Below, piece by piece: positions 20,024-53,722 of a DNA stretch of 64,000 nt. The stretch is from positions 82,365,501-82,429,500 of the forward strand of contig CM027378.1 in assembly GCA_015680905.1 (NCBI GenBank). The letters run 5' to 3'. The notes beneath the pieces are model-generated. The model saw nothing but the letters and a program-made list of their open reading frames with translations. It was not told the origin of the DNA and did not search any database. Position 1 is the stretch's first letter; each line of letters begins with the position of its first letter. The DNA comes from Coptis chinensis. Taxonomy: Eukaryota; Streptophyta; Magnoliopsida; Ranunculales; Ranunculaceae. The translations under genes were made by a program, and so were the position numbers.

Positions 20024-20747
20024 TAAAAAGAACGATGGTGGTGGTGGTGTGGTGGCGCGGCAGCACCAATTTTTTTATTTTTTATTTTGATTTTCCGATG
20101 GTTTTTGTTGATGTAAATTGGTGGAGGTGTGGGTAGGGCGGTTTGTTGAGTAGATTTGGGTGGGTCTTGGATTGTGGTGGGTTAATTAGGGTTTTGTTTT
20201 TAATTTGTTTTTTTTTTTTTGTCGGGTTTGAAGCTTTGTTAATGGCGGTTTGTGGAAAAAAAAATGATGAACTGATGGTGAAGGTAAGGGCGCGGGTGCG
20301 CTGCCGGTGGGCGCGGGTTGGGCCCAAGCCCAATTCGAAATTTGTGAATTTTTCGCGAAACTTCAAATCAAAATTGCCGCTTCGTTACCGGTCCGATTTT
20401 TGCGAATGAGATATGGAAATGATCAGGAGAGAATTTCCAATCCAATGATCCATAAAACACTCTATTCCGACCGTGGATGACATATAAGATAGTGGAAAAC
20501 GCCTCAAAGTGCGTGCATGACATACGTTATACGAACGACTGAACTCTAAATTCATAGATTATGTCAACCCGAATCGGAATACAATTAAACGGCCTAAGCA
20601 ATTCTAATGGGACATAAAACATTTTAGGACGGAAACACGAACACCCCACCCCCAAACAAATTTTTTACAACAAAGCTTAGAAAATTTGTTTTTAGGAGTG
20701 GGTCTTTTAAAGTCAGATTCTCGAGACTTCCTAGATTACTATGTTTA

Positions 20748-20794
20748 TTCATATATAATCCCAGTAATTGCAGTCGACTGGGATTATATATGAA
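20748..20794. repeat. 18-bp perfect inverted repeat at the virus/R2 junction
   Basis: TTCATATATAATCCCAGT (20748-20765) and its exact complement ACTGGGATTATATATGAA (20777-20794) flank an 11-base spacer. The spacer and inner arm (AATTGCAGTCGACTGGG) also occur in the viral intergenic region near 20930 and 27421, whereas the outer part reads as R2. The hairpin marks the left junction of the viral insertion. Confidence 0.85.
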
Positions 20795-20858
20795 TAGTTT
20801 GGTGTGTGTAGTCGACAGTATTTGGATAAGTATTTGGTCCCAACAAGGGTGAGGTATC

Positions 20859-20867
20859 CCTTTTATA
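20859..20867 (-). promoter_or_regulatory. TATA box of viral intergenic region, unit A copy
   Basis: The minus strand reads TATAAAAGGG followed by ATACCTCACCCTTGTTG. The same block stands at 27351-27359 at the end of unit B. In caulimovirids the pregenomic promoter lies in the intergenic region before the primer site, which fits the B copy directly. For the A copy the downstream unit is missing. Confidence 0.6.
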
Positions 20868-21214
20868 CTAGTCGGAACTCAAAATATAATTTGGAGTCCG
20901 CACAGGAAGTGGCTACGTGTGCTTCAATAATTGCAGTCGACTGGGCCACCTTGACAAAGCATACTTGTCTTTTACTTCTGTCTTCAAAGGATAAGAATCC
21001 TTTTGATACTTTATTCCATTACCTTTTGACTTTAAAGAAAAGAAAAAGGTGAAATATCCCTTTCATGGGTCCTTCTTGGATAAAGTAATAAGAATACAGC
21101 TGCTGATTCTATTTCTGGTCCTTAATTTGGGCCATAGTGTCTGCCATTATGCTGAAAAGATAATTATTATTATCTTCGGAATTCTGAAAATTTGCCGTGT
21201 AAACCTGAACTTCC

Positions 21215-22573
21215 TTACTTGTTAAAGGAAGTAGTCTTGGATTCCTGTTTTGCCTTAAGGGCTTCTTTGAACTTGGCCCATATGTCCATAGGTTCTTCTG
21301 GAGTCTTAGAAGAGCTTGGATATAACAGGGTTATTGCTTCTGTAATATCAAAATTGTCACCCAATTCTTCTTCGGGCTGACCTTCTCCGGCTAAGCAAGC
21401 AAATTGGTTTGCTTCTTCCTGACTATTAATTGATGTCATGGAAACATCATCATGCTGAGAAGATAGCATTGCATTTTCTGAGGATGAAATTTCCTTAGTA
21501 CCCTAGGATTCCAAAACTGGTAACTTAAAGGAATTTACAAAATGATTTTTAAGCTTCTCCATGTATAACTCATTAATTTGGCTATCAGAGAAACTGGGAT
21601 TCTGAAATTTGATAAGATTCTTCATCATTTCGAAAGGATTCCCTGTATCCACATCTTCTGTAGGATTAATTCTGGGAGTCTGTTCAATGAATGATTTCAA
21701 ATCATTCTCAATGCTGATGATGGCTTCATCTGTTGGAAAAGAAATCCACCATCTTGAATAGATTTTTCTTGGGATGGGGAATTTTAAGGTGATTATATTC
21801 ACAACTAAAATCCCACTTGAAAATCCAAGGAATACCATATATGGTAAAAAAGGTCAAGGATGATAATCCTCTTGGCATCTTATCATTGCCTTTCAGCTGA
21901 GGATGATTGTCAGTCCATTTTAGAAAAATATCTAAAAGATTCTCCGGGAGAATATCCAATTCTGGACCAAAATACTCCCACCATTGAAAGATCCAATATG
22001 GATAGTCAGTCTTGATTGACTGTGGACACAGTTTGATAAACCATGAGTGTTTCCTGTGAGAATTCTGATACAAAAACACATTAGTAAAAGCTGAGATATA
22101 ATCCCAGTAATTATATAGGAGATTTGTCGAACTCAATTTTCGACACTTGTTGGGATCCAAACCCCACTCACTGTAAGAGATAATTCTCTTAAAAATTGCT
22201 TTGCTGTAAGAGATCGGACTATATTCCGAATCAGGATGCTGTAAAGTATGGTGAATATCCATACTGGAAGTAGCCGAAGCTAATATTTCTTCATAGATAT
22301 ATCTATGTTTGCCGTCAACAACAGGATACTGCTGTGTGTCAAAATATCTTCTTTGAATTTCCCAAGGATCAGGCATCCACCGCTTTCATCCCCCGTTGAA
22401 GATAAATGATGTTTGATCGCCCTTTTATTAGGGACATAAGGAGTCGAGGAGTAAGGACTGCCTCTTTCATTGACTTTCCTTTTTTTGCTGTGATAATGGA
22501 GGAAATTGCTCCTCGCATCCAAGGAAATTATATTTTCCTTTGTTTTTCCTCGGCCTCTTGTGGTATAAACCAC
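21215..22573 (-). pseudogene. Unit A second ORF (ORF2-like), unknown function
   Basis: The region contains an N-terminal basic stretch (RGRGKTKEN, KKRKVNERGS) and a tryptophan-rich part with FQWWEYFGPELDILPENLLD. Unit B has a counterpart in the same place, with FWQYFGPEDMFLIDELLE, so the YFGPE core is shared while the rest differs. Florendoviruses carry a downstream ORF of unknown function at this position. Fossil, broken. Confidence 0.6.
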
Positions 22574-22749
22574 GACCTTTGCCTCTCGAGAGAGGTGCTC
22601 ATGATCCCCGCAAGAATTCTCTAGTTAGAAAATCGGCAAAGAATTAGAATCACCTTTGATATATTCAATATCAAAATCAAAGGCGAAAGATCCGCTTGCC
22701 ATCCCAAAAAAAATCTGTTTAGAAGCAATATTCTTGATATCTTTCAGTA

Positions 22750-23700
22750 ATAATGTTTAGCAAAGACTACAATCAATACATTACCAAGAACTTCGATTCA
22801 AGAAATCATCCCGAATTTATGAATACACTTTACCAAGGACAGAATCTCTTGTTTAATAGTAGAATAATTAATCTGTGCTTTCTTCCAAGTTCCAGAAGTA
22901 AAACGGATTAATTCTTCTTTCTTAGAGATAGGATTCTTCTGTTTTAAGATACCCCCATAACCAAGGTTAGAAGCATCTGTTTCCACAATTTTTAACCAAT
23001 CAAAATTAGGCAAAGATAAGCAAGGTAACTGTTTTGCCTTTCAAATTTTAATTTTTGTACCAAGACTAGTATGAGCTGTACACTCCAAGAGGTTGGAACC
23101 TTTGTTAATCTGAGTAGAATAGAGGTATCCTGTGAAAGATTTTTATAATAGTCCGCCAAATAATTCAGACTACCAAGAAATCTTTTGTAATCGAAGTTTT
23201 GTCTAAAATTTCATCAGAAATTTAGAAGCAAACTCAATACTTCTTCGGTCGATAGGAATAATTTTTCCTTGGTAATATTATGCCCAAGAAAAACGACTTT
23301 GTTGTTTGAAACAACTTCATTTTTGGAGCCGATACTACTAAACCATTACGTTTAATAAGCTCTTTAAATATCTTTAAATGCTTAATATGTCGTTTCTAGA
23401 GATTTAGAATAAATTAGAATATCATCAATATAGACTATAGCAAAATCCTAATAAGGATTGCAAATCTCATTCATGATATTCTGAAATTCAAGGAGCATTC
23501 TTCAAACCAAAGGGCATTACCGGCCCATTCATAATGTCCAAAGGGTAATGCTTTGTAAAAGCAGATTTTTTATACCTATCTTCGAGGGGCAATTTGGACT
23601 TGCCAAGAACCCGACTTAAGGTCAAACTTTGAGAAGATGATCGCGGTAGATAAACGATCTAATAAATCTTTTTATTAGAATTGGATATCTAATCCATTGT
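22750..23700 (-). pseudogene. Unit A reverse transcriptase and RNase H region
   Basis: The catalytic box VYIDDI is readable on the minus strand at about 23419-23441, and the RNase H piece (22798-23013) carries the ETDASNLGYGGILKQ motif and a following WKKAQINYSTIKQEILSLV helix. These are the standard caulimovirid RT/RNase H signatures; the enzyme converts pregenomic RNA to DNA in the particle. Nothing like it is seen in unit B. Fossil, broken in several places. Confidence 0.85.
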
Positions 23701-25498
23701 AAGGCAAGATTAAGAGGTTTGAAATTAATAACCGGTCCGGGAACACCTCTTTCTTTCTCACCGCTTTATTGACATAAAAAAGTTGCACAACCCAAGGAGA
23801 TTTACTTGGAGTAATCAACTTCTTATCCGTAAGACTCACGGATCTCTTTTCGCATAAAGTCAAAATTCTCGATTTCATTTGACTGGGTCTAGCCTTAGTG
23901 GGAATAAACTGTTCATTAAAGCTAGATTCATAGGGTAAAGAAACCATATGCTTCTTTCTTTCCCAAAAAGCATTGGGAATATCACTACAGACTTCAGTAA
24001 TAAATTGATTTTTAATTTGTTCAATTTTATTCTGAAACTCCTTACTGTTGAGTCTTTGCTGTAACTTTAAAGAAGTTATTTCTTCTTTGAGAAAGTTTAA
24101 TTGACTTTCTTTGGCTACTAGGTTTGTATTAATCATAGCAACCTGTTTTTGAACCGGAGGAGTTATGAACTCAAAGATAACTCTATTTTTATCAATAGTT
24201 GCATGAATACCTATATTAGTGATACTAGTAATAGGCATGATAGAGTTAAGGAAAGGATTTCCTAAAATAGTATGCTGGGACATATCTTTCACCAGAAGAA
24301 AGGTAGTAGATAAACAATGTCCTTCTTTGCAGATGAATACATCTGTTAATTTGTATGCAACCTGCATAGGTGCGCCACTAGCAGTAGAAAGATTTTGAGT
24401 AGATTTCTCAAAATATTTAGTAGGAACTAAACCCTCTTGAATACAATTTAGATCTGCTCCACTGTCAATAAGGGCAACATGATTAGTGAGAGTATATTCT
24501 CCTTTAATAACTAAATTCACATGGACATTCCATCTTTGGAATGTAATGTTATTAGCCTTAGTATAATTCTGAATTTCAAAATTGTCCACCATATTCCTAT
24601 TGGTCTTTAAGGCTTTTATGTCTGTTTTAAGGTTATTAACCTCATACTGTAGATCCTGAATACTAGTGATATGAGAATTTCCTTTATATAAAGTATTAGG
24701 AAGTCTCATATGATTATAAGAACCAAGATTCTGTAAGGTCATAAAGTTTTGAAGATAATTAAGATTATAAATCTTTTCCTGTGGATTAATCTTAAATTTT
24801 CTTATCTTCAAAAGATTACTATAGTCTTGTGGTCTAGTAGAACACTGACTAGTCTTATGACCATTATGATCACACTTATGACATAAACGAAGAGCTTTGG
24901 CTTTAGGCCTAAGTTTCTTCCAATGCTGCTTTTCTCTAAGACTTTTTGGTTTTTTATAAGTCTTAGAATCATTGATTTTAGTAACTAGTAGGTTATCCTT
25001 TTCTTTTATTGGAGGAAGAACAGTCATCATATCCATGTTCACCTTAGAATGTTTTGTTTCACATTCTAAAACTCCAATATAATTATTAGTAGGAGTAATA
25101 TCCTCCTTGATAACAGGTGAAATAACAATTCTTTCCTGTTCAAGAATTACCTCTTTATTAGGTAAATTCATATCTTTGGTAATTAAGGTATTATTATTAT
25201 TATTGTTAGGAAAATCCATTTTTTCCTTAGCAATTCTTCTAGCCTCTTGTTTAGCTTTAAAGAAATCACTAATATCCTTACTCAGAGTTGCACGCTCAAC
25301 TCTGCCATTCAGAATTTTATTATTCTGATACTCTAAGCAAAACCATTTTGTCAGAGGAGTACAATTCCTCTGATGATAATCATAATAATCATCATAAGGT
25401 CTAAGCATAGGTTTCAATTCTGTAGGAGTAAAATATTTACTCAACTCTTCATATTTTAATTTATAAAATTGATAAGTTTCATAAGGTGTATAATCCAT
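23675..25498 (-). pseudogene. Unit A polyprotein region: zinc knuckle and aspartic protease
   Basis: A long open stretch of about 607 codons. Its first ~70 residues (from MDYTPYETYQFYKLKYEEL) are almost identical to unit B at 32238. Then come a charged linker, a Lys/Arg-rich stretch, a CCHC zinc knuckle (CHKCDHNGHKTSQC, about residue 205), and a retropepsin domain with ALIDSGADLNCIQEG (about residue 345) and ILGNPFLN. The end reaches the start of the RT domain. No capsid core is recognised between linker and knuckle. Fossil. Confidence 0.8.
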
Positions 25499-25599
25499 CT
25501 ATAAAACAAAATCCATTTCGGACGCTGTGGGAGATTCCCTAGCTTGCTGTGTATAAATACCATGTGGTATTTGTTGATTAGAGATACGGATCTCTTCTA

Positions 25600-26347
25600 C
25601 GATTGATTATCTTGTGTTGTAGATTCAGTTTCAAACTGAATGCCTAGAAGATCGGGTGGTATAGAGATCTTGTAAGGGGACCTCAAAGACAAACTTCTAC
25701 CAACAAAAGGTTTCTTAAAGTTCAATATAACTTCACCTTTCATTTGTTTGGACTATATCCGGTCCAAATCATTATTAATGATTGGCTGTGGTTGAACAGT
25801 TTTTCACGCAAATCCATGATTCTCGAAATTGAATCTCACTCCAAGGAATCATCCCGGTGTTGCTACACTAGAAGTTAAAAGATTTGTGTCTATTAACACA
25901 GTCTTTACCCGGGTGTAGTTTTATGTCGTACATTAGGTGTTAAAGTCCAGAACACCTTGTAGTGAATTCTGTAAGTAATTCCTATCACTTCGATCCGTAA
26001 AAAGTTATAACCTTTAGCTTTGAATTTGTAATGATCTGAGAATCATAAAGATTTCTATCCGATAAAGCTAAACTTAAATTAGGATAGACATCAAAATAGA
26101 CGGGTCCATGACAAAGACTAGTCTCTACCGCTCCCATAAGGGACGGTAAATAGTCGAGACACCTAGCATCTCTCGAAAGTGTTGCTTGGATACAAGCATT
26201 CATTCCCAAAAGGGTCAATGGTCCGAAAGCAACCTCAGATAAGCCTATGTGAATAAATTTATAATTCTTCACATGGTGATATAAATCACGAGGGCTTAAA
26301 AGATTTAAATTATTACTCATGGAATTTAAACTAATAGTTTGTTCCAT
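25600..26347 (-). pseudogene. Unit A movement-protein region
   Basis: The piece at 25985-26347 includes LLGMNACIQATL, ARCLDYLPSLMGAVETSLCH and GPVYFDVYPNLSLALSD, the central core of caulimovirid movement proteins (30K superfamily), which guide virus through plasmodesmata. The same region in unit B is 32672-33100. The downstream part (about 25600-25930) matches the unit B C-terminal piece at 32337-32633. Fossil, broken. Confidence 0.85.
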
Positions 26348-27133
26348 AGTTTTTACCGCATTTTATCGGGTCAATTTTTCAATCCAGTTACCATATCTAT
26401 ATATGGTTTTGGGATCCATATTAGGGATCGCCCATTTATTCATTTTGTCCTCGTGTGTCGAGATCATACTCGATTAATTTCGTGTTCTTAATTGAACTCG
26501 ATCATCATTATTTGATGATTGTGCCATGGGGTTGAGGTGTTAGTGCAAAACAGGTAGAGTATAATGAATTATAACTATACCAAACAAGATAAAAAACTAT
26601 TCTTGATGTAATCATTGACACATCGTCTTCTTCTCCAAATATTATAAACAGTATAATCAAAATCAAGTCTTTAGTGCTTATATTAAGTAAAAACCACGCC
26701 TGTCAACGCTTTACGGGAGCAAACGGCCTAAACGCTTTCTGCTAAACGGCACGAAAGATATACCCTACTGGCGACTTTGGTGACGCCCCAGAAGTTACCA
26801 ATATAAACGTAAAAGAAACAATAATGACACATTTGCTAATGCAAATAGTCTTATTTCAACAAGAATAAAATTAAGTAATCTTAACTTTATCTCTAATAAG
26901 ATACTATTCATAATACTGGAAAGGAAGAGTCAACAGTATTTTAGGATCCAGGCGGACATTCTTGTGGTCGGAAAACCGAGCCTTTAAGCAAGTAGTCCTA
27001 AAGAGTAACCCTCACACCTTTCTCCTTAATCATACTTATATCTCTTACTTACATCTTTACTTAGGAAATCATACAATTAAATATAATTGTAAAACATTTC
27101 CTCACCGTTATGCACTAACCTCAAATTAAGCTG

Positions 27134-27150
27134 CCATGGCTCTGATACCA
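27134..27150 (-). other. Viral tRNA-Met primer-binding site
   Basis: The minus strand reads TGGTATCAGAGCCATGG, the classic plant initiator-tRNA-Met priming site used by caulimovirids. About 200 bp of leader separate it from the TATA box at 27359. A similar but scrambled motif (ACTGATACCAAATATAAAG on the plus strand) sits at 33126-33145, at the ragged right edge of unit B. Confidence 0.88.
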
Positions 27151-27350
27151 ATTATAAAGAAAAGAGATCAGGTAAAACACCTGATTAATGCGGAAGAAGA
27201 TCAGTCAGCAGCAAGAACACTTGATTAAACTGAACTTTTATTTATATGGATGGAAGTGTATGTTACAAGGGGAGAAAGAGAGCACTCTTAGCAAACTAGA
27301 AAGAAAATTGAAAGGTAAAATGTTGTGTCCCTCAACAAGGGTGAGGTATC

Positions 27351-27359
27351 CCTTTTATA
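27351..27359 (-). promoter_or_regulatory. TATA box in the intergenic region between viral units
   Basis: On the minus strand TATAAAAGG (27359-27351) lies about 200 bp upstream of the unit A primer site. An AATAAA-type polyadenylation signal (minus strand, about 27243-27236) lies between the two. TATA, then poly(A) signal, then primer site is the usual pregenomic-RNA control region of the family. Confidence 0.65.
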
Positions 27360-27553
27360 CTAGTCGGAACTCAAAATATAATTTGCAGTCCGCACAGGAA
27401 GTGGCTACGTGTGCTCCAATAATTGCAGTCGACTGGGCCACCTTGACAAAGCATACTTGTCTTTTACTTCTGTCTTCAAAGGATAAGATTCCTTTTGATA
27501 CTTTTCTCCATTACCTTTTGACTTTGAAGAAAGGAAAAGGTGAAATGTCCCTT

Positions 27554-29122
27554 TCATGGGTCCTTCTTGGATAAAGTAATAAGAATACAGCTGCTGATTT
27601 TATTTCTGGTCCTTAATTTGGGCCATAGTAATCCGCCATTATCCGAAAGTGCGTAGATTCTCAAAGAACTTGGATCGGGGATATCATTATCCACATCTTC
27701 AAGTTCTGACTCAGAGGAAAGGTACCCAAGATGGTTAAGATACTCATAAGAGCCTTCTTCCTCTATTAATTTGAGGATCTCCATAGCCGTTGGACTAAGA
27801 GCCAAAGAGCTCATCCTGCTGAATTGCTCAAAGAATTTGGTTTTATTAGAATTGTCCAAAGATTCTGTAAGGATAAGAAATCTATCAGATTCAGACAACA
27901 AAGTAAACTTTGGATACTTTTGTGCTGAATTAGATCTGATAAACCATTTAATCTGATGAAGACCAATAGCACGAATTTCGGCCATTTCTCTGATCCTGTC
28001 TTCTGCTGAAATTATATGAAATTTCTCCTTAGATTCCGAAAGAGAAATAACTCTTGATATGTCATCAAAAGGTCTCTGTTTATGGATTCGGACCAAAAAT
28101 ACTGCAGGATAAGTTTCATCTTCTTCAGATATTCAAGGGACAAGTCGTGGTAAATTCCAAAGAAAGCAGGTTCCATGCCATTTTATCATAGTATTTTCTA
28201 TGGCATGAACCAATGGTGAAGGCAGGAATGTTCTTTCATTAGTTCCTGCTTCCAAAGATACTTCTGTACTAATGGTTATGGATTTGATAAATCCCATCTC
28301 TAGTAATTCATCAATTAAAAACATATCTTCAGGACCAAAATATTGCCAAAATGTGGCAGGAAGGAAGATATGAAGACTAGGATGTATACTGTGAGTACCT
28401 TCAGTAATAAGGGCAATACCTTTTATAATCAAAGGACAAGAACCCAACACTATTGAATTCCAATGATTAATCCATTTCTGAAAATGTGAAGGAGGAAGAT
28501 TTTGGATTAATTCAGGTAAAGGTGCTGGTAGGGTAATTTTGGCTTTATTCCAAAAATATTCTGAAAAGTCTTTGGAGAGAATACTCCAAGACACACAATC
28601 AAGGGATCTCTTTGCACTATTGGTTTTATTAACCTGGGACCAAGGCTTGATTGAGTTCTGGTTAAGCTTGCTAAAATATTTAGCAGTGATTTTAAGGATC
28701 TGAATAAGATCTTTTTTATTATGCTGATCAAAGGCATTGATAACATTGTCCAAAATGGACTTCTGAAAGCTGTGAAGCTTTTGATGTGTAAAGAACTTAT
28801 GTCGGTTATCATAGACATAAGGTAACTCTAGATCATCAAATCGTACTTTTCTTTTACCAGTACTGTTAGACTTTCTAGAAATATTATGCGAAGAACTCGC
28901 ATTGATGCTGAAATAATCAGACTCCAAGGTTTTACCCTTGTTGGTGCTGTCAGGAATACCAACAGACTCCTGGGAATTATCCCAGTTAAGGAGGCCTAAA
29001 TTGTCCTCAAGAGTGTTGATCATGTCAACACTAGCAGTATCCTGAAAGGATTCAGAGGCCTTTGAAGGTTGCTCTGTGTGCTGTCCATATAATGGATTCT
29101 CCAATGAACCAAATTGGAGCAT
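27554..29122 (-). pseudogene. Unit B second ORF (ORF2-like), unknown function
   Basis: Two adjoining open parts (29122-28133 and 28096-27554). The first has a Ser/Asn-rich start, then a helical, Trp-rich body with HFQKWINHWNSIVLGSC and FWQYFGPEDMFLIDELLE. The second is charged and includes IRAIGLHQIKWFIRSNSA. It holds the same place as ORF2 of unit A and shares the YFGPE core. No function can be given. Fossil. Confidence 0.6.
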
Positions 29123-29256
29123 GCTGGATTCTGTAAAAAGACATTTAATTATGCCTTAGATGTACAGGATATAATCCCGGAGAAATATTCTCTGAATGAT
29201 GAAGAGTATATTATTTCCAAAATATTTGGATACTCATAAAGCCTTTATTTTGTGAA

Positions 29257-31032
29257 TTATATTTCACAATCTTGGATCTTCCTGTTCTGCAAAGAAGAAG
29301 AGATAAATTCGAAGACCAAAGGATGATCCTCAAAGTTAGTGTAAATGCCATAATTGTCAATTTTATTTATAGGCATAATGGTATTTAAGAAAGGGGTTCC
29401 CAGTATAATTTGCTGGGTAAGGCCTTTAATCAATAGAAAAGATAGAGGTATATTAACCTCAGTCTTACTAATATTAACCTTAGTAAGCTTATGCTGAATA
29501 GCAATTTTACTACCACTAGCACTGGTCATAGTTTGAGTAGTAGTTTCAAAATATTTTGGTGGAATTAATTCTTCTTGGATGCAATTCATATCTGCACCAC
29601 TATCGACTAAAGCAATATAATTATTTAGAATATATTCTTTGTCAATAATCAAGGTTATAAAAATATTCCATTTCCGAGAAAGTACAGAGGAAGTGAAACT
29701 GCAGTGTTGGAAGTTACTGTCTTCCTTGAAATAGTGTTTTTCTATTTGAAACACTCTTTGCTTTAAATGAAGAATCTCTTTGTTGAGATTCTGGATTTTA
29801 TCATTGATATCCTGGGTGACAAGAGATTTTGAGGAACTAGGTTTATTCTTTCCTAGGCGATCAAAAACCTCTTTAAGATTATATCCTTCTGTAGGATCAA
29901 CAATGTTGTCCTTAACTGTTTTAAAGCAAGTTTTAATTAACTTTAGCTTAGTGTCAGGGTCAGTAATAGAGTCGATAAGCTCTAAGACAGACTGTTGTTC
30001 TGAGGTCAGAACATTAATAGCTAACCCATTCATCTGTAAAATAGCTCTCATGCTATCACATTTAGATTGCAACATGTTACACTGACATGGTGCTTCATTT
30101 TCTGAAGTACTAGAGTAAGGATCTTCAGATTCATTATCAGATTCAGAAGAACTAGTATTAAGTAAGATTTTACTTAATTGTAATTTAAGATCTTCATTAA
30201 TCTCTAGATTATTGATTTTCTGTTTAGTATAGCACTGGTTGGCATAATGACCAATTTTTCCACATTTTAAACAAGTAATATTACTTTTATGGTGTGGATC
30301 TTTATAAAAATCTTTATTAGGTTTCCAATTTTTATTGAAACTCCTTTTATGTTTTCGAGAATATATTCTCTTACTGTTTTTCTGGGGTTTTCTAGAAGAA
30401 ATTTTCTTCTTTCTTTGAGAAGGAATATCATAAGCAAATTGCTCACAAAATTCTCCTAGCTCTTGTTTACCAGAAAGATTCTGTTTTTTAAGCTGATGCT
30501 GTAGCTTAAGATCATTACAAAGGCTAAGACCTTCTTGAATGACCTGACTAATGAGACTCCCATAAGTATGGGACTCATAAGAAATATTAGATCCTCCATT
30601 AAGATCTCTGAGCTTTTTCCTAACCTTTTCTGCAAAGAAGTTAGGGAGACCATCAATAAATTTAGATTTCCAATGCTCACTATTAGCATCATGTAATTGT
30701 AGAACTTTGGCTAGGAAGACATCCTTATACCATCTAAAATGAGATAGAGTAGGACATCTAAGATTTTGCAGCATCTCTCTATTCTTTTCAGCTGACAAAC
30801 CTTCTGGTCCAATAAAATGATGGACAATGGTTAGGCATAGAGTGTAGACTGCGTCAGAAATAGATATATTCTGATTAGCTTCGGAACTAAACTCCACTTT
30901 GGTAGAGTTATAGATTTCATCTCTTTGCTCATGAGTGAGAACATTATCCCACCAACCTTTAAGAATACCTACAAATCCATGGGAAATAAACCTGCAGACA
31001 TCTGCATATCTGTATTTCCATGGGCTTTGCAA
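29257..31032 (-). pseudogene. Unit B capsid, zinc knuckle and protease region
   Basis: An open stretch of about 591 codons. The first ~200 residues have a capsid-like fold signature (GFVGILKGWWDNVLTHEQRD; TLCLTIVHHFIGPEG; SHFRWYKDVFLAKVLQL). A strongly basic tract follows (residues about 200-245), then the CCHC knuckle CLKCGKIGHYANQC (about residue 255; 30273-30232), an acidic Ser/Glu stretch, and a retropepsin with ALVDSGADMNCIQEE and ILGTPFLN. Capsid, basic tract and knuckle package RNA in this family. Unit A lacks the capsid part. Fossil. Confidence 0.82.
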
Positions 31033-31215
31033 ACACTCGCATACATGAGCATTTCCTGAAGCGTGTGATAAATCTGATAGTCAGATTTAGCATCAATATT
31101 CCAAGTGTAAATAGTCTTAGCTTGATAAGACACTTGGTCATTAAAATAGGCTTCTTCATAAAGAATATCTTGAGAGTGGGTCTAGGATAATAATTCTCTT
31201 TGTGACCTATATGAC

Positions 31216-32238
31216 TCACTTTCTGCAAGATTCGCGCTCATAAGTTATTTTATTCAGATTAGAGAAGTTTAAATTTGCTTCAATATCCAAAATTTCATTT
31301 GGATTAATATCATCTTCAGAATTAGATTCTTGAGAAAGAATATTAAGATTTAATTTGCTTAATTGGGTGTATAATTTCTCAATAAAATCATTTTTGGATG
31401 AAGACTGATCCAGCTTTGAAATTGGGAATATCCACGGGAGGTGAATAGATGGTCTAATATGACCAAAAGAACTGTTTTGTTTTAAAGAAATATTCTTTAA
31501 AGGTTCTTTATCCTTATTAGGATCAATCCTAGGGGTATGTTTAAGGATATTTTCAGTATTATTCTCAATTCTGATTAATTGAGCTCCAATAGTTTGTAAA
31601 CACAAATTTGTATAATTATTCTGTTTACAAATTTTATTAATATCCTCTATCTTCACAGATTTGTGGGCTTCTTCTTGGGTGGGCTTGATATAAGCCGCAG
31701 TCTCCAGACTATCTTTCAGTTTCAAAGGTGTTGTTGGAGGATGAATAGCTGTCATCTCCTTTTCATCAGTAGTAGTCCATTTTTTCTGATGAAATTCTAA
31801 CACACCAATATAATTATGCACAGGAGTAAAATTACAGTTAGTAGTGATCTCCTCCTTTGCAATAGGTGGAATAATAATCCTTTCCAGTTCTTGAATTACC
31901 TCTTTATTAGGTAACTTATTTTCCTTTTTAATTAAGGTATTTTCCTTAGGTAAATCTATTTTTACCTCGGCCATAAGCCTAGCCTCTTGTTTGGCTTTAA
32001 GAAAATCACTGATATCTTTTCTCAGAGTTGCACGCTCAACTCTACCATTCAGAATTTTATGATTCTGATACTCTAAGCAAAACCATTTTGTCAGAGGAGT
32101 ACAATTCCTCTGATGATAATCATAATAATCATCATAAGGTCTAAGCATAGGTTTCAATTCTGTAGGAGTAAAATATTTACTCAACTCTTCATATTTTAAT
32201 TTATAAAATTGATAAGTTTCATAAGGTGTATAATCCAT
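31216..32238 (-). pseudogene. Unit B linker region shared with unit A
   Basis: It starts MDYTPYETYQFYKLKYEELS, and its first ~100 residues are almost the same as unit A at 25498. It then diverges into a charged linker. The shared stretch ends about where the capsid-type content begins downstream, which places the change-over point between the two unit types. Function of the shared segment is unknown; it follows the movement protein directly. Fossil. Confidence 0.7.
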
Positions 32239-32336
32239 CTATAAAACAAAATCCATTTCTGACGCTGTGGGAGATTCCCTAGCTTGCTGTGTATAAATAC
32301 CATGTGGTATTTGTTGATTAGAGATACGGATCTCTT

Positions 32337-33100
32337 CTACAGATTGATTATACTGTGTTGTAGATTCAGCCAAACTGAATGCCTAGAAGATTGTGGTATA
32401 GAGATCTTGTAAGGGGACCTCAAAGACAAACTTCTACCAACAAAAGGTTTCTTAAAGTTCAATATAACTTCACCTTCTGTTGTTTGGACTATCTGGTCCA
32501 AATCATTATTAATGATTGGCTGTGGTTGAACAGCGTTTCTGCAAATCCATGTTTCTGGAAATTGAATCTCACTCCAAGGAATCATCCTGGGTGTTGCTAC
32601 ACTAGAAGTTAAAAGATTTGTGTCTATTAACACAGTCTTACCTGGTGTAGTTTTATGCCGTACATTAGGTGTTAAAGTCGTAACACCTTGTAGTGAATTT
32701 CGTAAGTAATTCCTATCACTTGAGATCCGTAAAAGTTATAACCTTTAGCCCTGAATTTGTAATGATGAGAATCATAAAGATTTCTATCCGATAAAGCTAA
32801 ACTTAAATTAGGATAGACATCAAAATAGACTGGTCCATGACAAAGACTAGTCTCTACTGCTCCCATAAGGGACGGTAAATAGTCGAGACACCTAGCATCT
32901 CTGAGTGTTGCTTGGATACAAGCATTCATTCCCAAAAGGGTCAATGGTCTGAAAGCAACCTGTATTAAGCCTATGTGAATAAATTTATAATTCTTCACAT
33001 GGTGATATAAATCACGAGGGCTTAAAAGATTTAAATTATTACTCATGGAATTTAAACTAATAGTTTGTTCCATAGTTTTTACCGCAATTTTACTGGTCAA
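32337..33100 (-). pseudogene. Unit B movement-protein region
   Basis: The larger piece (33100-32672) begins near MEQTISLNSMSNNLNLLSPR and holds the 30K-superfamily core LLGMNACIQATL...AVETSLCHGPVYFDVYPNLSL. The smaller piece (32633-32337) has IPWSEIQFPETWICRN. Both match the unit A region at high identity. Fossil, broken. Confidence 0.85.
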
Positions 33101-33120
33101 TTTTTCAATCCAGTTACCAT

Positions 33121-33360
33121 ATATAAACTGATACCAAATATAAAGAAAAGAAAAGAGATGGAAGTGAATATAGTATTAATAGTGATTAATAGTATTAATC
33201 AGGTGATTAATAGTATGCCTCCAAATACTATTAATCAGGTGATTAATAGTATTTGGTATCAGATCACATTAATCAGGTGATTCCTTTTGATACAGTTCCC
33301 TACACACACCAAATATGTTTGCTTCTTCCTGACTATTAAATATATATATATATATATACT
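33121..33360. repeat. Scrambled filler DNA at the right edge of the virus
   Basis: This stretch mixes short pieces found elsewhere in the viral units: a primer-site-like GATACCAAATATAAAG, TTAATCAGGTGATT repeated in both orientations, CTACACACACCAAA (the complement of the left edge near 20799), and TTTGCTTCTTCCTGACTATTA (as at 21408). An (AT)n run ends it at about 33340-33358. Such patchwork is typical of end-joining repair at integration. Confidence 0.7.
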
Positions 33361-34777: not shown

Positions 34778-36422
34778 TTACTTTGTTATCAACCACTCGC
34801 TGCGGAGGAGAGTGGTGATGGCATTTAGCTCACCTACATTTTCATATTCATTACTAGTATTATTGGTTACCTCAAAGGCTGTATTTGTTATTTTAGGTAT
34901 TTCGTGACTTGGAAACACACCTTTGTGTTGGGCTTTATCTTGAGCCAACTGTTGGGTTAAATTATTAACGGATTGTAGAAATTTGTTGGTTAGATTGAGC
35001 CATGGTTTGGAAAAGTTTTGGCTCACTTGTATGAAGGTGTCAAGACGATCTAGTTGTGTGGGTGTAGTAGTCACGGGTGGTGTATTTCGAACTATTTCAC
35101 GCGGAATTATTTATGGGTGGATTTTGATAGTTATTATTTATCGGAACGATACCTCTATTAGCATTATAATTATTATAACTACCTTGACTTTGTGCTTGAC
35201 CTTGTCGAGGTTGCACTTGGTTGTTATAATTATTAAAATTACCGACCACCGCCCTTGACGCGTGGTGGAGCTTGGTTAAACCGTATGCGTTGGCCTAACA
35301 TATTGATTATTGTACCCTGGAGGTGTGACGTGTTGGTTATTTCTCCAACCGAAGTTGGGATTATTTCTCCAAAGGGCGTTAGGTTCACTATTAATGGAAC
35401 AAGCCTATTCATAGGCTATAGGACAGTGGGAGTCGGGATGCTCAAGGCTCCAACAGAAACTACATGGATTTGAATTTACGTTCATGACGGGGATAGGCTT
35501 TTGTTGTTGAGAAATGGCCTCTACCTTTTTAGTGAGTGATTCGATTAGAGTTTTAAGCTCGGGATCGTGTTTAATTTCAAACATACCGGGCGGCCTTAAT
35601 CTGTATTTGATGAACTAGCGGAGCGGTGGATATCGCCACTACCCCCGTTGTTATTTCGCTTTTAGTTTGATCCTCTAAAAATTTATAAGCCTCCGAGGCT
35701 CCTTTGCTTAAGAAACTACCCCCATTCATTATGTCTAGGACTTCTTTATGGTGGTGTAGAAGTCCTTTGAAAAAAGCACTAACTAACGGTCTTTCGCTAA
35801 GTTATGATGTGGACACTCTATAAGGAGATCGGTGAACGATTCCAAGCCTCAAAAAATGATTCATGAGGATTTTGTCGAAAGAAATGAATCTTGGAAAGCA
35901 TCTCATCCATCTTTAGGGGTGGGTAAAAATGTTCCATAAACAGCTGAACAAGTTTAGCCCACGAGTCCACAGAATTAAGCGCTTGGGCAGTTAACCAAGA
36001 CACCGCCTTATCGGCTAAGGTGAAAGGGATTACCCTTAGCTTAATTTGTTCCGCACCAACCGTAGGATGGTGGAATGTTGTTAAGACTTGTTCAATCCTA
36101 CGCATGTGCTGATAAGGTTTTTCATGGTCTAATCCATGAAAAATAGGTAACAAATTAAAAATATTTGGGGATTCGAAATCCCCAATCGGGTCCGCTAGAG
36201 AACGATGCAAGATTTAGGGCTATCGCTCAAGGCTTTGTAGAAGTCAGAGAGAGGAGTCTTTTCTTCGTCGGGCATTGTGTCAGGTGATGTGTGTGAAATA
36301 GTAGCTAGAGGTGTAGTGGGTGGTATACTAGATAGACTTGTTTGTTGACGTTGTTGGGTAATTACTATACGTTCGGTGTTTTTGTTCGGCGAGACCTTAA
36401 TCTCATACAAGGCTAAAACCAA
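34778..36422 (-). pseudogene. R2 gag remnant
   Basis: It matches F and R1 gag: TPLSDFYKALSDSPKSCIVL, FNLLPIFHGLDHEKPYQHMR, VIPFTLADKAVSWLTAQALN and HFYPPLKMDEMLSKIHFFRQ. The downstream part, to 34778, encodes polar sequence with TTTPTQLDRLDTFIQV and an Asn/Gln-rich segment. Gag forms the particle shell. Fossil, broken in several places. Confidence 0.82.
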
Positions 36423-52046: not shown

Positions 52047-53722
52047 ATGGTTAAAGGACAAGAGACTCTCTCTGATTTTTATAAAGCCCTAAACGATGGC
52101 CCTAAGTCGTACATCGTTCTTGCAAATCTAGTGGGAGATTTTTGAATTCCCCCTAATATATTTAACTTGTTACCGGTTTTTCATGGTTTTTCATGGTTTA
52201 CCCTAATATATTTAACTTGTTACCAGCATATGTGTAGGATAGAACAAGTTCTCCCTACATTCCATCATCCTAGCGTAAGTCCAGATCAAGTTAAACTTAG
52301 GGTGTTTCCTTTCACCCTAGCCGACAAGGCGGCGTCTTGGTTAACTGCCCAAATGCCAAACTCGGTGGACTCATAAGCTAATCTTGTTCAATTGTTCATG
52401 GAACAGTTTTACCCACCAATGAAGACAGATGAAATGCTTCAAAAGATTCATTTCTTCCGCCAGAATCCTCATGAATCCTTTTCAGAGGCCTGGAATCGTT
52501 TCACTGATCTTCTCATTGAATGCTCGTATCATAATCTTGCGAAAGACACACTTCTTCGTGCCTTCTTCAAGGGGTTTTTACATCGTCATAAGGAGGTTCT
52601 AGATATCATGACTCGGGGTAGTTTTCTTAGTAAAGGAGCTTTTGAGGCTTATAAATTCTTAGAAGATTACTCTAAGAGGAACAACAATTGGGGAGGTCAC
52701 GACTCTTCCCGCTCCTCTCCTTCTTCTCTTGAGGTTAAACATGATCCCCAGCTTAAAACTCTTATCGATGCTCTCACTAAAAAGGTAGATGCCATCTCTG
52801 TTAAACAATAACCCAATCCTGTCATGAACATTAACTCTATTCGTTATAATGTCTGTTTTAGTCTTGAGCATTCCGACTTCTATTGTCCTCTTGTCTATGC
52901 ACAACTACCACCACAACCATCAAACTTCAACCAGTTAACTCAACCTCAAGGACAAGGAAACTTAGGTAACCAGATAGAGGTTTAGTGCCCATGACCTAGA
53001 ACTATCAACATTAAGACATGAACGCTCAACAAGCCTTAATTCCAATTCAACCATCCACAGACAAAGTAGTAGTGACCTTGTTGGGAAAACAAAATCAAAT
53101 TATGCAACAAAACTCCAACTTGATGAAAGATCAGCATGATCAAAACTTTAATATGATGAAACAAACGATGCAAATGATGCAGTCTTTGTGCCAAAAGGTT
53201 ATTGACATGTCTCCTAACCAAAATAATAACTAAACAGGCGTGTTTCCAAGTCAAGCAGTGCCTAATCCTAAGTCAACAAACACCACCTTCAAAATAAACA
53301 GTATTCACTGTAATTGTAATATAAACCAAGGGGACCTACATGCAGTCACTACCCTTCGTTCAGGGAGAGTAGTTGATAACAAAGTGACTATGCTTATAGA
53401 TCGCCCGCAAACAGAAGCTAAAAATGAAACCATACCGAATACTGTCATAGAAACTGAAGACCCTACAACTGTAGAAGTTCCAGTCCAACCACAACTAAGA
53501 GGTACAACCTTAATAAATACCACCATAGAAATTGATGATCCTACACCTGTAGAGGTTCCAATATGGACACCTAGATGGAAAACGGCTAAAAATAACGCAA
53601 AGACTAATAATACTTTTGAACCTTATGCTAAATATAGAGATAAACCACCGTATCCCCAAAGACTAGTTGTGTCTAAAAAGGACGAGAATTTTGATGAGAT
53701 TAGGGAAGTGTTTAAAATCTAA
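52047..53722 (+). pseudogene. F gag region
   Basis: ATG at 52047, then TLSDFYKALNDGPKSYIVL, KLRVFPFTLADKAASWLTAQ, the core MFMEQFYPPMKTDEMLQKIH, FFRQNPHESFSEAWNRFTDL, and LIECSYHNLAKDTLLRAFFK. The tail (53018-53722) is Gln/Asn-rich (MKQTMQMMQSLCQK) and then leads to LHAVTTLRSGRVVDNK and YPQRLVVSKKDENFDE, which normally precede the Athila protease. The gag particle shell is encoded here. Fossil, broken in several places. Confidence 0.85.

What the first reader, a model, noticed from the sequence alone, without database searches (positions are those of the whole stretch)
20795..33120. Two complementary units of an endogenous pararetrovirus side by side: a probable two-component florendovirus-like genome
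Seen: both units share the movement-protein region, the first ~100 residues of the next region, and the intergenic region (about 96% by eye). The middles differ: A has zinc knuckle, protease, RT (YIDD) and RNase H; B has a capsid core, zinc knuckle and protease, with only ~140 bp between protease and ORF2. Known: two-component genomes have been reported for florendoviruses, an unusual arrangement for reverse-transcribing viruses. Inference: A and B are the two components of one virus, integrated as a tandem. This is the most exciting system in the window. An alternative is that B is simply a deleted and recombined copy.
Basis: partly seen in the sequence, partly recalled or inferred. Interest (0 to 1): 0.88.

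Follow-up and report, generated by a model that had tools for sequence, protein, structure and literature searches.

The report
Two-part plant virus fossil in goldthread
This stretch of the goldthread (Coptis) genome holds two side-by-side fossil pieces of an ancient reverse-transcribing plant virus that seems to have split its genes over two DNA molecules, a rare layout already reported in grapevine and rice and seen here in many copies.

Summary
Observation confirmed; reading largely holds. Two caulimovirid units lie head to tail on the minus strand of a Coptis chinensis chromosome. A (20841-27150): MP, zinc knuckle, protease, RT, RNase H, ORF2. B (27333-33136): MP, capsid, zinc knuckle, protease, another ORF2, no RT. 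Regulatory region, MP and ~130 codons are 92-96% identical; the proteases only ~43% (protein). Genome-wide, 0 of 30 A loci read show capsid within 1.5 kb upstream of RT. Protease joins ORF2 without RT in 19 of 20 B loci, 4 of 5 of a second lineage, 3 of 4 divergent ones; 39 of 40 scored junction hits cross the join. 17 of 40 A loci have B within 15 kb (random mean 0.04). Shared parts group by viral lineage, proteases by component: the partners kept recombining while both stayed under purifying selection. So B is not a local deletion. It is a new member of a known kind: bipartite florendoviruses and a rice pair with concerted evolution are published. Differences seen: MP is a separate ORF coupled stop-to-start, and ORF2 of B is not fused. 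Genus placement by RT could not be tested.

The parts
33128..33136 (-). Truncated primer-site remnant (9 nt) at the outer end of B; leader and MP start missing in this copy
   Evidence: motif recalled
32242..33125 (-). B: movement protein, frame broken, ends at stop 32239-32241
   Evidence: Pfam MP 1.2e-13; stop directly before ATG
31219..32238 (-). B: start of second ORF (340 aa); first ~130 codons shared with A
29257..31080 (-). B: capsid (DUF7746 + caulimovirus coat domain), CCHC knuckle 30273-30232, protease site 29610-29590, stop 29259-29257
29123..29256 (-). B: 134-nt junction protease to ORF2, no RT
   Evidence: 39 of 40 scored genome hits span it
27554..29122 (-). B: ORF2 (from ATG 29122; one in-frame stop 28135-28133)
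   Evidence: no homologue at E<=0.01
27333..27642 (-). B: intergenic region, TATA at 27359
27139..27332 (-). End of B / start of A: AATAAA 27242, tRNA-Met-type primer site 27150-27139
26420..27138 (-). Viral leader, strongly folded
   Evidence: (46 matches, 40 of 342 candidates scored), (z -7.8, 20 shuffles)
25499..26419 (-). A: movement protein from ATG 26419, frame broken, stop 25501-25499
23675..25498 (-). A: second ORF (607 aa): shared start, CCHC knuckle 24883-24842, protease site 24472-24452, start of RT
   Evidence: Pfam RVP 1.9e-08
23211..23674 (-). A: rest of RT with YIDD 23432-23421, frame broken
   Evidence: same region open in L014
22798..23040 (-). A: RNase H fragment
   Evidence: Pfam RT_RNaseH_2 3e-18
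21215..22602 (-). A: ORF2, broken; Arg/Gly-rich start in intact copies
20841..21150 (-). A: intergenic region, end of array

Best explanation
The array is an integrated B-A heterodimer of an ancient caulimovirid with two circular DNA components of roughly 6.7 kb. Shown by sequence: A carries MP, knuckle, protease, RT and RNase H; B carries MP, capsid, knuckle and its own protease, plus a different ORF2; both carry the same promoter, poly(A) signal, primer site, leader and MP; both architectures recur genome-wide, co-occur, and were under purifying selection. Inferred: A supplied reverse transcriptase for both RNAs and B supplied capsid for both. The shared block of about 2.3 kb holds the cis signals that let one enzyme set serve both. 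The two met in the same cell, perhaps the same particle, often enough for template switching or nuclear recombination to keep that block alike while the unlike middles diverged. Recombination in the same block would also join B to A head to tail. MP stops right at, or overlaps by one base, the start of the next ORF, so that ORF was probably translated by termination-reinitiation.
For: Recurrent architectures. Co-location: 17 of 40 A with B within 15 kb, random mean 0.04, maximum 2 in 2000 draws; 11 of 49 clusters mixed. B-to-A spacing of 7369-7456 bp in 5 of 6 B-A pairs, the window included. MP block groups A1+B1 against A2+B2 at 100/100, component clades rejected p-AU 8e-65; intergenic region the same, p-AU 8e-6; protease groups by component, lineage clades rejected p-AU 0.001. 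Pooled dN/dS between lineages 0.15-0.33 for B parts, 0.20-0.30 for A parts. Stop adjoining ATG in 25 of 25 lineage-1 loci with the motif, TAATG in 9 of 9 lineage-2 loci with it.
Against: Only the best 40 hits per probe were scored, so a rarer monopartite helper could be missed. 38 of 49 clusters hold one component only. Both components keep a protease and MP, so the division is redundant. Within lineage 1, three A loci form their own supported group in the MP tree (100/99), and B2 is one side of a branch, without support (46/0), in the intergenic tree, so mixing is not complete. Co-packaging and complementation are not shown.
Confidence: 0.75

Rival explanations
1. Helper dependence: B, or A, or both, are non-autonomous satellites of an autonomous monopartite caulimovirid and share its regulatory block, rather than being an obligate pair.
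For: Chen 2017 describes both a commensal and a mutualistic case in grasses (abstract and sections 8 and part 1 of 10 read). Many loci carry one component only.
Against: No monopartite unit was seen: 0 of 30 A loci with capsid within 1.5 kb upstream of RT, 0 of 29 B-type loci read with RT after protease, neighbouring same-strand A and B hits at least 5.07 kb apart. Together A and B already hold the full caulimovirid set.
Confidence: 0.15
2. B is a deletion or recombination derivative of A (or of a lost full genome) that never worked, copied only with the host genome.
For: B lacks RT, and the window copies have broken frames.
Against: AP differs by 0.40-0.44 per site from A's while MP differs by 0.06; pooled dN/dS 0.15-0.33 between lineages; the same junction on nine chromosomes' worth of contigs.
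Confidence: 0.05
3. The shared block was made alike after integration, by gene conversion between host copies.
For: Many copies lie in clusters, where conversion could act.
Against: A and B of one lineage group together although the loci lie on different contigs, and copies still differ by about 5-9% from each other, so conversion is not erasing differences.
Confidence: 0.05

Closest known systems
Bipartite florendoviruses: Vitis vinifera B and D viruses, Oryza sativa B virus, Sorghum bicolor virus (Geering 2014, PMC4241990; passages seen)
   Same: A without (or with partial) capsid but with RT; B with MP, capsid and protease and no RT; intergenic region >90% and MP >87% alike; compound A+B loci; B more abundant than A (there twofold in Oryza; here 152 vs 89 first-look candidates, not scored); (TA)n beside the locus
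   Different: There B is one polyprotein with a C-terminal ORF2 homologue and, by the text, only the N-terminal part of RNase H missing; here MP and ORF2 of B are separate ORFs, no RNase H similarity was found in B by translated comparison, and ORF2 of A and B barely match
Rice ePVCVL / ePVCVL2, complementary non-autonomous pararetroviruses (Chen 2017, PMC5491270; abstract, section 8 and part 1 of section 10 read)
   Same: One lacks capsid, the other lacks RT; intergenic 99.3% and MP 95.3% alike, proteases dissimilar; concerted evolution of the intergenic region
   Different: Grass hosts; there IGR trees within Oryza; here two diverged A/B pairs in one eudicot genome, and the contrast is shown with MP, intergenic region and protease
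Sugar beet bipartite florendovirus-like elements (cited in PMC10377300; passage seen)
   Same: Reported evidence of a bipartite genome in a eudicot
   Different: Primary paper not seen; no comparison made
Aquilegia coerulea MP-capsid proteins P0012, P0017, P0040
   Same: Ranunculaceae host (recalled); MP, linker and capsid in the same order; 43-50% identity to B's capsid ORF
   Different: MP and capsid in one ORF without the stop-start break; whether bipartite is not known

Membership tests
Caulimoviridae | 30K-type MP, caulimovirus coat domain, retropepsin, RT and RNase H | tested here: met
   Pfam matches in window frames and, for RT, in L014; divided over A and B
Caulimoviridae | tRNA-Met primer site in the non-coding region, no integrase | tested here: met
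   Primer-site motif 27150-27139 (motif recalled); no integrase among Pfam matches of the 15 frames scanned
Florendovirus (tentative genus) | RT placed in the florendovirus clade | not testable with these tools
   No named RT references held; viral-contig scan confirmed none
Florendovirus (tentative genus) | Usual layout: ORF1 polyprotein MP-CP-AP-RT-RH1, ORF2 of unknown function | tested here: not met
   MP is a separate ORF, capsid and RT lie on different units; a downstream ORF2 is present. Geering notes a split ORF1 in Glycine max virus, so the layout varies; I therefore call this florendovirus-like, not a filed member
Bipartite florendovirus genome | Complementary A and B with IGR >90% and MP >87% identity | tested here: met
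   IGR 95.8%, MP side 92.0%; complementarity
Bipartite florendovirus genome | Compound A+B insertions and many copies of each | tested here: met
   11 of 49 clusters mixed; 40 scored hits each
Bipartite florendovirus genome | B polyprotein with a C-terminal extension homologous to ORF2 of A, part of RH1 kept (Vitis) | tested here: not met
   Protease stop TAA and ORF2 ATG conserved in 23 of 23 B loci aligned; A-B ORF2 similarity only a ~20-residue patch, hhalign probability 3.6%; no RH match A-B
Bipartite florendovirus genome | Components needed each other in infection | not tested
   Needs a living system; step referred
Partnered non-autonomous pararetroviruses (Chen 2017) | Partners' intergenic regions recombine so that they mix in the tree while proteases stay distinct | tested here: met

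The most novel reading that the evidence does not exclude
An obligately two-component reverse-transcribing virus lived with Coptis as co-diverging A/B pairs through at least one virus split (lineages 1 and 2; divergent B loci L104 and L105 hint at a further one). A and B RNAs met in the same cell or particle, so that recombination kept a 2.3-kb regulatory-plus-MP block in step while two proteases specialised apart. It arose independently of the grapevine and grass cases and used stop-start coupled translation in place of one polyprotein.
Probability: 0.4. Interest if true: 0.65.

Novelty: new member of a known kind. Interest (0 to 1): 0.45.

Why it matters
Divided genomes are common in plant RNA viruses, but for reverse-transcribing viruses they rest on a handful of fossil cases. 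This one lies in a Ranunculaceae genome, with at least tens of copies of each part and two diverged A/B pairs, so 'partners or debris?' can be asked with numbers: shared blocks follow lineage, private genes follow component, and both were under selection. If the grapevine, grass and Coptis cases are independent (not tested here), the same division of labour emerged repeatedly.

Tried and rejected
Rejected: host spacer between the units (it is viral leader); B as a dead local deletion; an LTR retrotransposon (the shared block includes MP, each unit has one copy, and no integrase matched). Led nowhere: protein search with ORF2 of B, 981 candidates, none at E<=0.01; scan of viral contigs with an RT alignment, 49 pattern matches, none confirmed; Pfam on ORF2 of A and B, nothing above its cut-off. 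No structure was predicted. Weak: in the AP tree with other sources (70 of 97 matching proteins used) A and B pair at SH-aLRT 70 only, so whether they are sisters is open.

Limits of counts. Each genome probe scored only the best 40 places: RT 40 of 89 first-look candidates, capsid 40 of 152, MP 40 of 220, leader 40 of 342, junction 40 of 148. I read 30 of the 40 A and 20 of the 40 best B places, plus 5 second-lineage and 4 divergent B places. The A loci reach 1.5 kb upstream of the probe, so 'no capsid' means none in that stretch. Rows dropped before trees: L063 and L065 from the MP block (20 of 22 kept); L079, L080, L093 from the intergenic tree (19 of 22); L048 and L102 from the protease tree (53 of 55). 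Lineage labels came from identity to the window (lineage 2: 86-88%) before the trees were made. In the protease tree A2 is not one side of a branch and B2 has support 4, while A against B has 100. dN/dS values are window-against-others pairs, pooled, not a tree; the row called CPcore covers, for second-lineage and divergent loci, only about 145 codons of the knuckle linker, not the capsid core; A-B protease dS was saturated. My notebook gives 4.7 kb as the closest same-strand A-B distance (end to start); the report uses 5.07 kb, start to start.
Full report
WHAT IS THERE. The window lies at C2:82365501-82429500 of a 935.6-Mb plant genome. Contig C6 has exactly the length (100,393,100) of the contig that carries P0001, a Coptis chinensis protein 92% identical to part of B's capsid ORF, so the host is taken to be C. 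chinensis, and P0001 comes from another B-type locus on another contig. Both units are on the minus strand. In viral sense the order is: truncated primer site 33136, B (MP fragment, capsid ORF with protease, ORF2), intergenic region 27642-27333 with TATA at 27359, AATAAA 27242, primer site 27150-27139, leader, A (MP from 26419, knuckle-protease-RT-RNase H, ORF2), intergenic region to 20841. The 0.9 kb between the units is viral: it gives 46 matches in the genome (40 of 342 candidates scored), and the last 30-58 nt of the leader run straight into MP in 5 of 5 A and 4 of 4 B loci of lineage 1 that were fetched there. The leader folds better than 20 shuffles (z -7.8), as long caulimovirid leaders do (recalled).

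SHARED AND PRIVATE PARTS. MP side 92.0%, intergenic region 95.8%; the protease matches over 126 nt at 74%, 43% in protein over 148 residues. Against database proteins the best matches are 53% for A's protease and 52% for B's, so A and B are no closer to each other than to others by identity; a tree of 72 rows gives each an end branch of 0.53 and pairs them weakly (SH-aLRT 70). ORF2 of A and of B share a patch of about 20 residues (BLASTP 0.02, hhalign probability 3.6%).

GENOME-WIDE TEST. All 30 A loci read (of 40 scored, 89 candidates) have knuckle region, A protease, RT, RNase H and at least part of ORF2, and none matches the capsid probe within its stretch. Of 20 B loci read (of 40 scored, 152 candidates), 19 run from capsid through B's protease and the short junction into ORF2 of B; L048 breaks off in the protease. 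Of five second-lineage loci 4 do so and L102 breaks off. Of four more divergent loci, picked from a search with an Aquilegia protein (62 matches, 51 of 771 candidates scored), 3 do so and go on into a related intergenic region; L106 is interrupted in the protease. 39 of 40 scored junction hits cover at least 699 of 701 bases, on contigs C1-C9; the other ends at 617. Among neighbouring hits, same-strand A and B starts are never closer than 5.07 kb, so none looks like one monopartite unit.

CO-OCCURRENCE. The 80 hits form 49 clusters at 15 kb: 23 A only, 15 B only, 11 mixed. 17 of 40 A have B within 15 kb, against a mean of 0.04 and a maximum of 2 in 2000 random placements on the same contigs. 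Of 31 neighbouring pairs within 12 kb, 17 are on one strand (6 B-B, 6 B-A, 5 A-B) and 14 on opposite strands. Five of six B-A pairs, the window's included, have starts 7369-7456 bp apart; five of six B-B pairs 6447-6839 bp. So the window's heterodimer is a recurrent product, as expected if circles join by recombination in the shared block (inference). Two of the five B-A pairs sit in one inverted arrangement on C4 and may not be independent.

CONCERTED EVOLUTION. In the MP block (20 rows) A1 and B1 form one side and A2 and B2 the other (100/100). Mean differences: A1-A1 0.062, A1-B1 0.062, A2-B2 0.056, A1-A2 0.108, B1-B2 0.118; holding the components as clades is rejected (p-AU 8e-65). The only well-supported group of one component inside a lineage is a trio of A1 loci, the window's among them. 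The intergenic region agrees (19 rows, 100/100, p-AU 8e-6; A1-B1 0.072, A2-B2 0.100, A1-A2 0.168, B1-B2 0.162), with B2 on one side of an unsupported branch. The protease does the opposite (53 rows): A-B 0.40-0.44, A1-A2 0.138, B1-B2 0.120; A against B at 100, lineage clades rejected (p-AU 0.001). Simplest reading: A and B split first, then kept exchanging the shared block within each lineage. The exchange probably took place in the virus, since it joins loci on different contigs (inference). Chen 2017 found this for the rice pair and favoured region-specific recombination, perhaps between nuclear minichromosomes, over template switching alone.

FUNCTION. Pooled dN/dS of the window against second-lineage and divergent loci: B knuckle linker 0.15, B protease 0.20, B ORF2 0.33 and its C-part 0.27; A protease and RT start 0.20, A knuckle region 0.30 (second-lineage A loci). 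Against lineage-1 loci it is 0.35-0.71, as expected when decay after integration is added. B was therefore a working, selected genome. In lineage 1 the MP stop directly precedes the ATG of the next ORF in all 29 rows with the start motif, 25 distinct loci, 21 TAG and 4 TAA; L052 and L058 lack the motif. In lineage 2 it is TAATG in 9 of 9 loci with the motif (L063 and L065 lack it); in 7 of 9 the longest upstream frame ends at that stop, up to 304 codons, and that 304-codon frame matches Pfam MP at 1.2e-15. Two arrangements, both tightly coupled, in A and B alike, point to termination-reinitiation, known from other caulimovirids (recalled). Three Aquilegia proteins read through this place. In 23 of 23 B loci aligned, the protease stop and the ORF2 ATG are conserved. 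ORF2 of A begins with an Arg/Gly-rich stretch in copies with an open start, a hint of nucleic-acid binding (inference).

KNOWN OR NEW. Bipartite florendoviruses were described in grapevine, rice and sorghum (Geering 2014, passages) and are cited for sugar beet (review PMC10377300, passages). CAULIFINDER reports that component B is easily missed (passages). Chen 2017 described the same logic in rice (abstract, section 8, part 1 of section 10). Diop 2018 was searched for passages only. Searches of the held library for Coptis chinensis with Caulimoviridae, Coptis with pararetrovirus and Ranunculaceae with florendovirus gave no paper; most subscription journals are not held. So the kind is known; the member and several anatomical details are new as far as these searches reach. 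The genus stays open.

LIMITS. Only the best 40 hits per probe were scored. Host flanks were not compared, so independence of insertions rests on spread over contigs and on divergence. Many small indels between copies may be decay or assembly noise. Nothing was tested in a plant.

Noticed in passing
window 33137-33330: Right edge of the array: scrambled short repeats, some resembling primer-site-proximal viral bits, as in filler DNA of end joining; an 18-nt (TA)n run follows at 33340-33357, as Geering reports near florendovirus loci.
   Followed up: partly
window 20746-20796: A near-perfect palindrome of about 50 nt just outside the left edge of the array, in which part of the viral intergenic sequence seems repeated.
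   Followed up: no
window 35818-36213; repeats at 38-1048 and 52335-52899: Retrotransposon gag (Pfam 5.7e-10) beside the array, with diverged copies of the stretch near both ends of the window: the array lies among old retrotransposons.
   Followed up: partly
L039-L057 around the MP end: Lineage-1 copies differ by many small indels in the ~100 nt before the MP stop, while lineage-2 copies keep the frame; decay, hypervariability or assembly error cannot be told apart.
   Followed up: no
G000:C4:43934621-43956569: Order B+ A+ A- B-: an inverted, palindrome-like arrangement of two B-A pairs.
   Followed up: no
L104, L105 (C2:52.73 Mb, C6:68.24 Mb): More divergent B-type loci (about 77% protein identity in the L104 linker and protease) with the same order and no RT: a possible third lineage; its A partner was not sought.
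   Followed up: partly
L025, L030, L052: A or B ends joined to leader or promoter pieces, some inverted: rearranged arrays.
   Followed up: no
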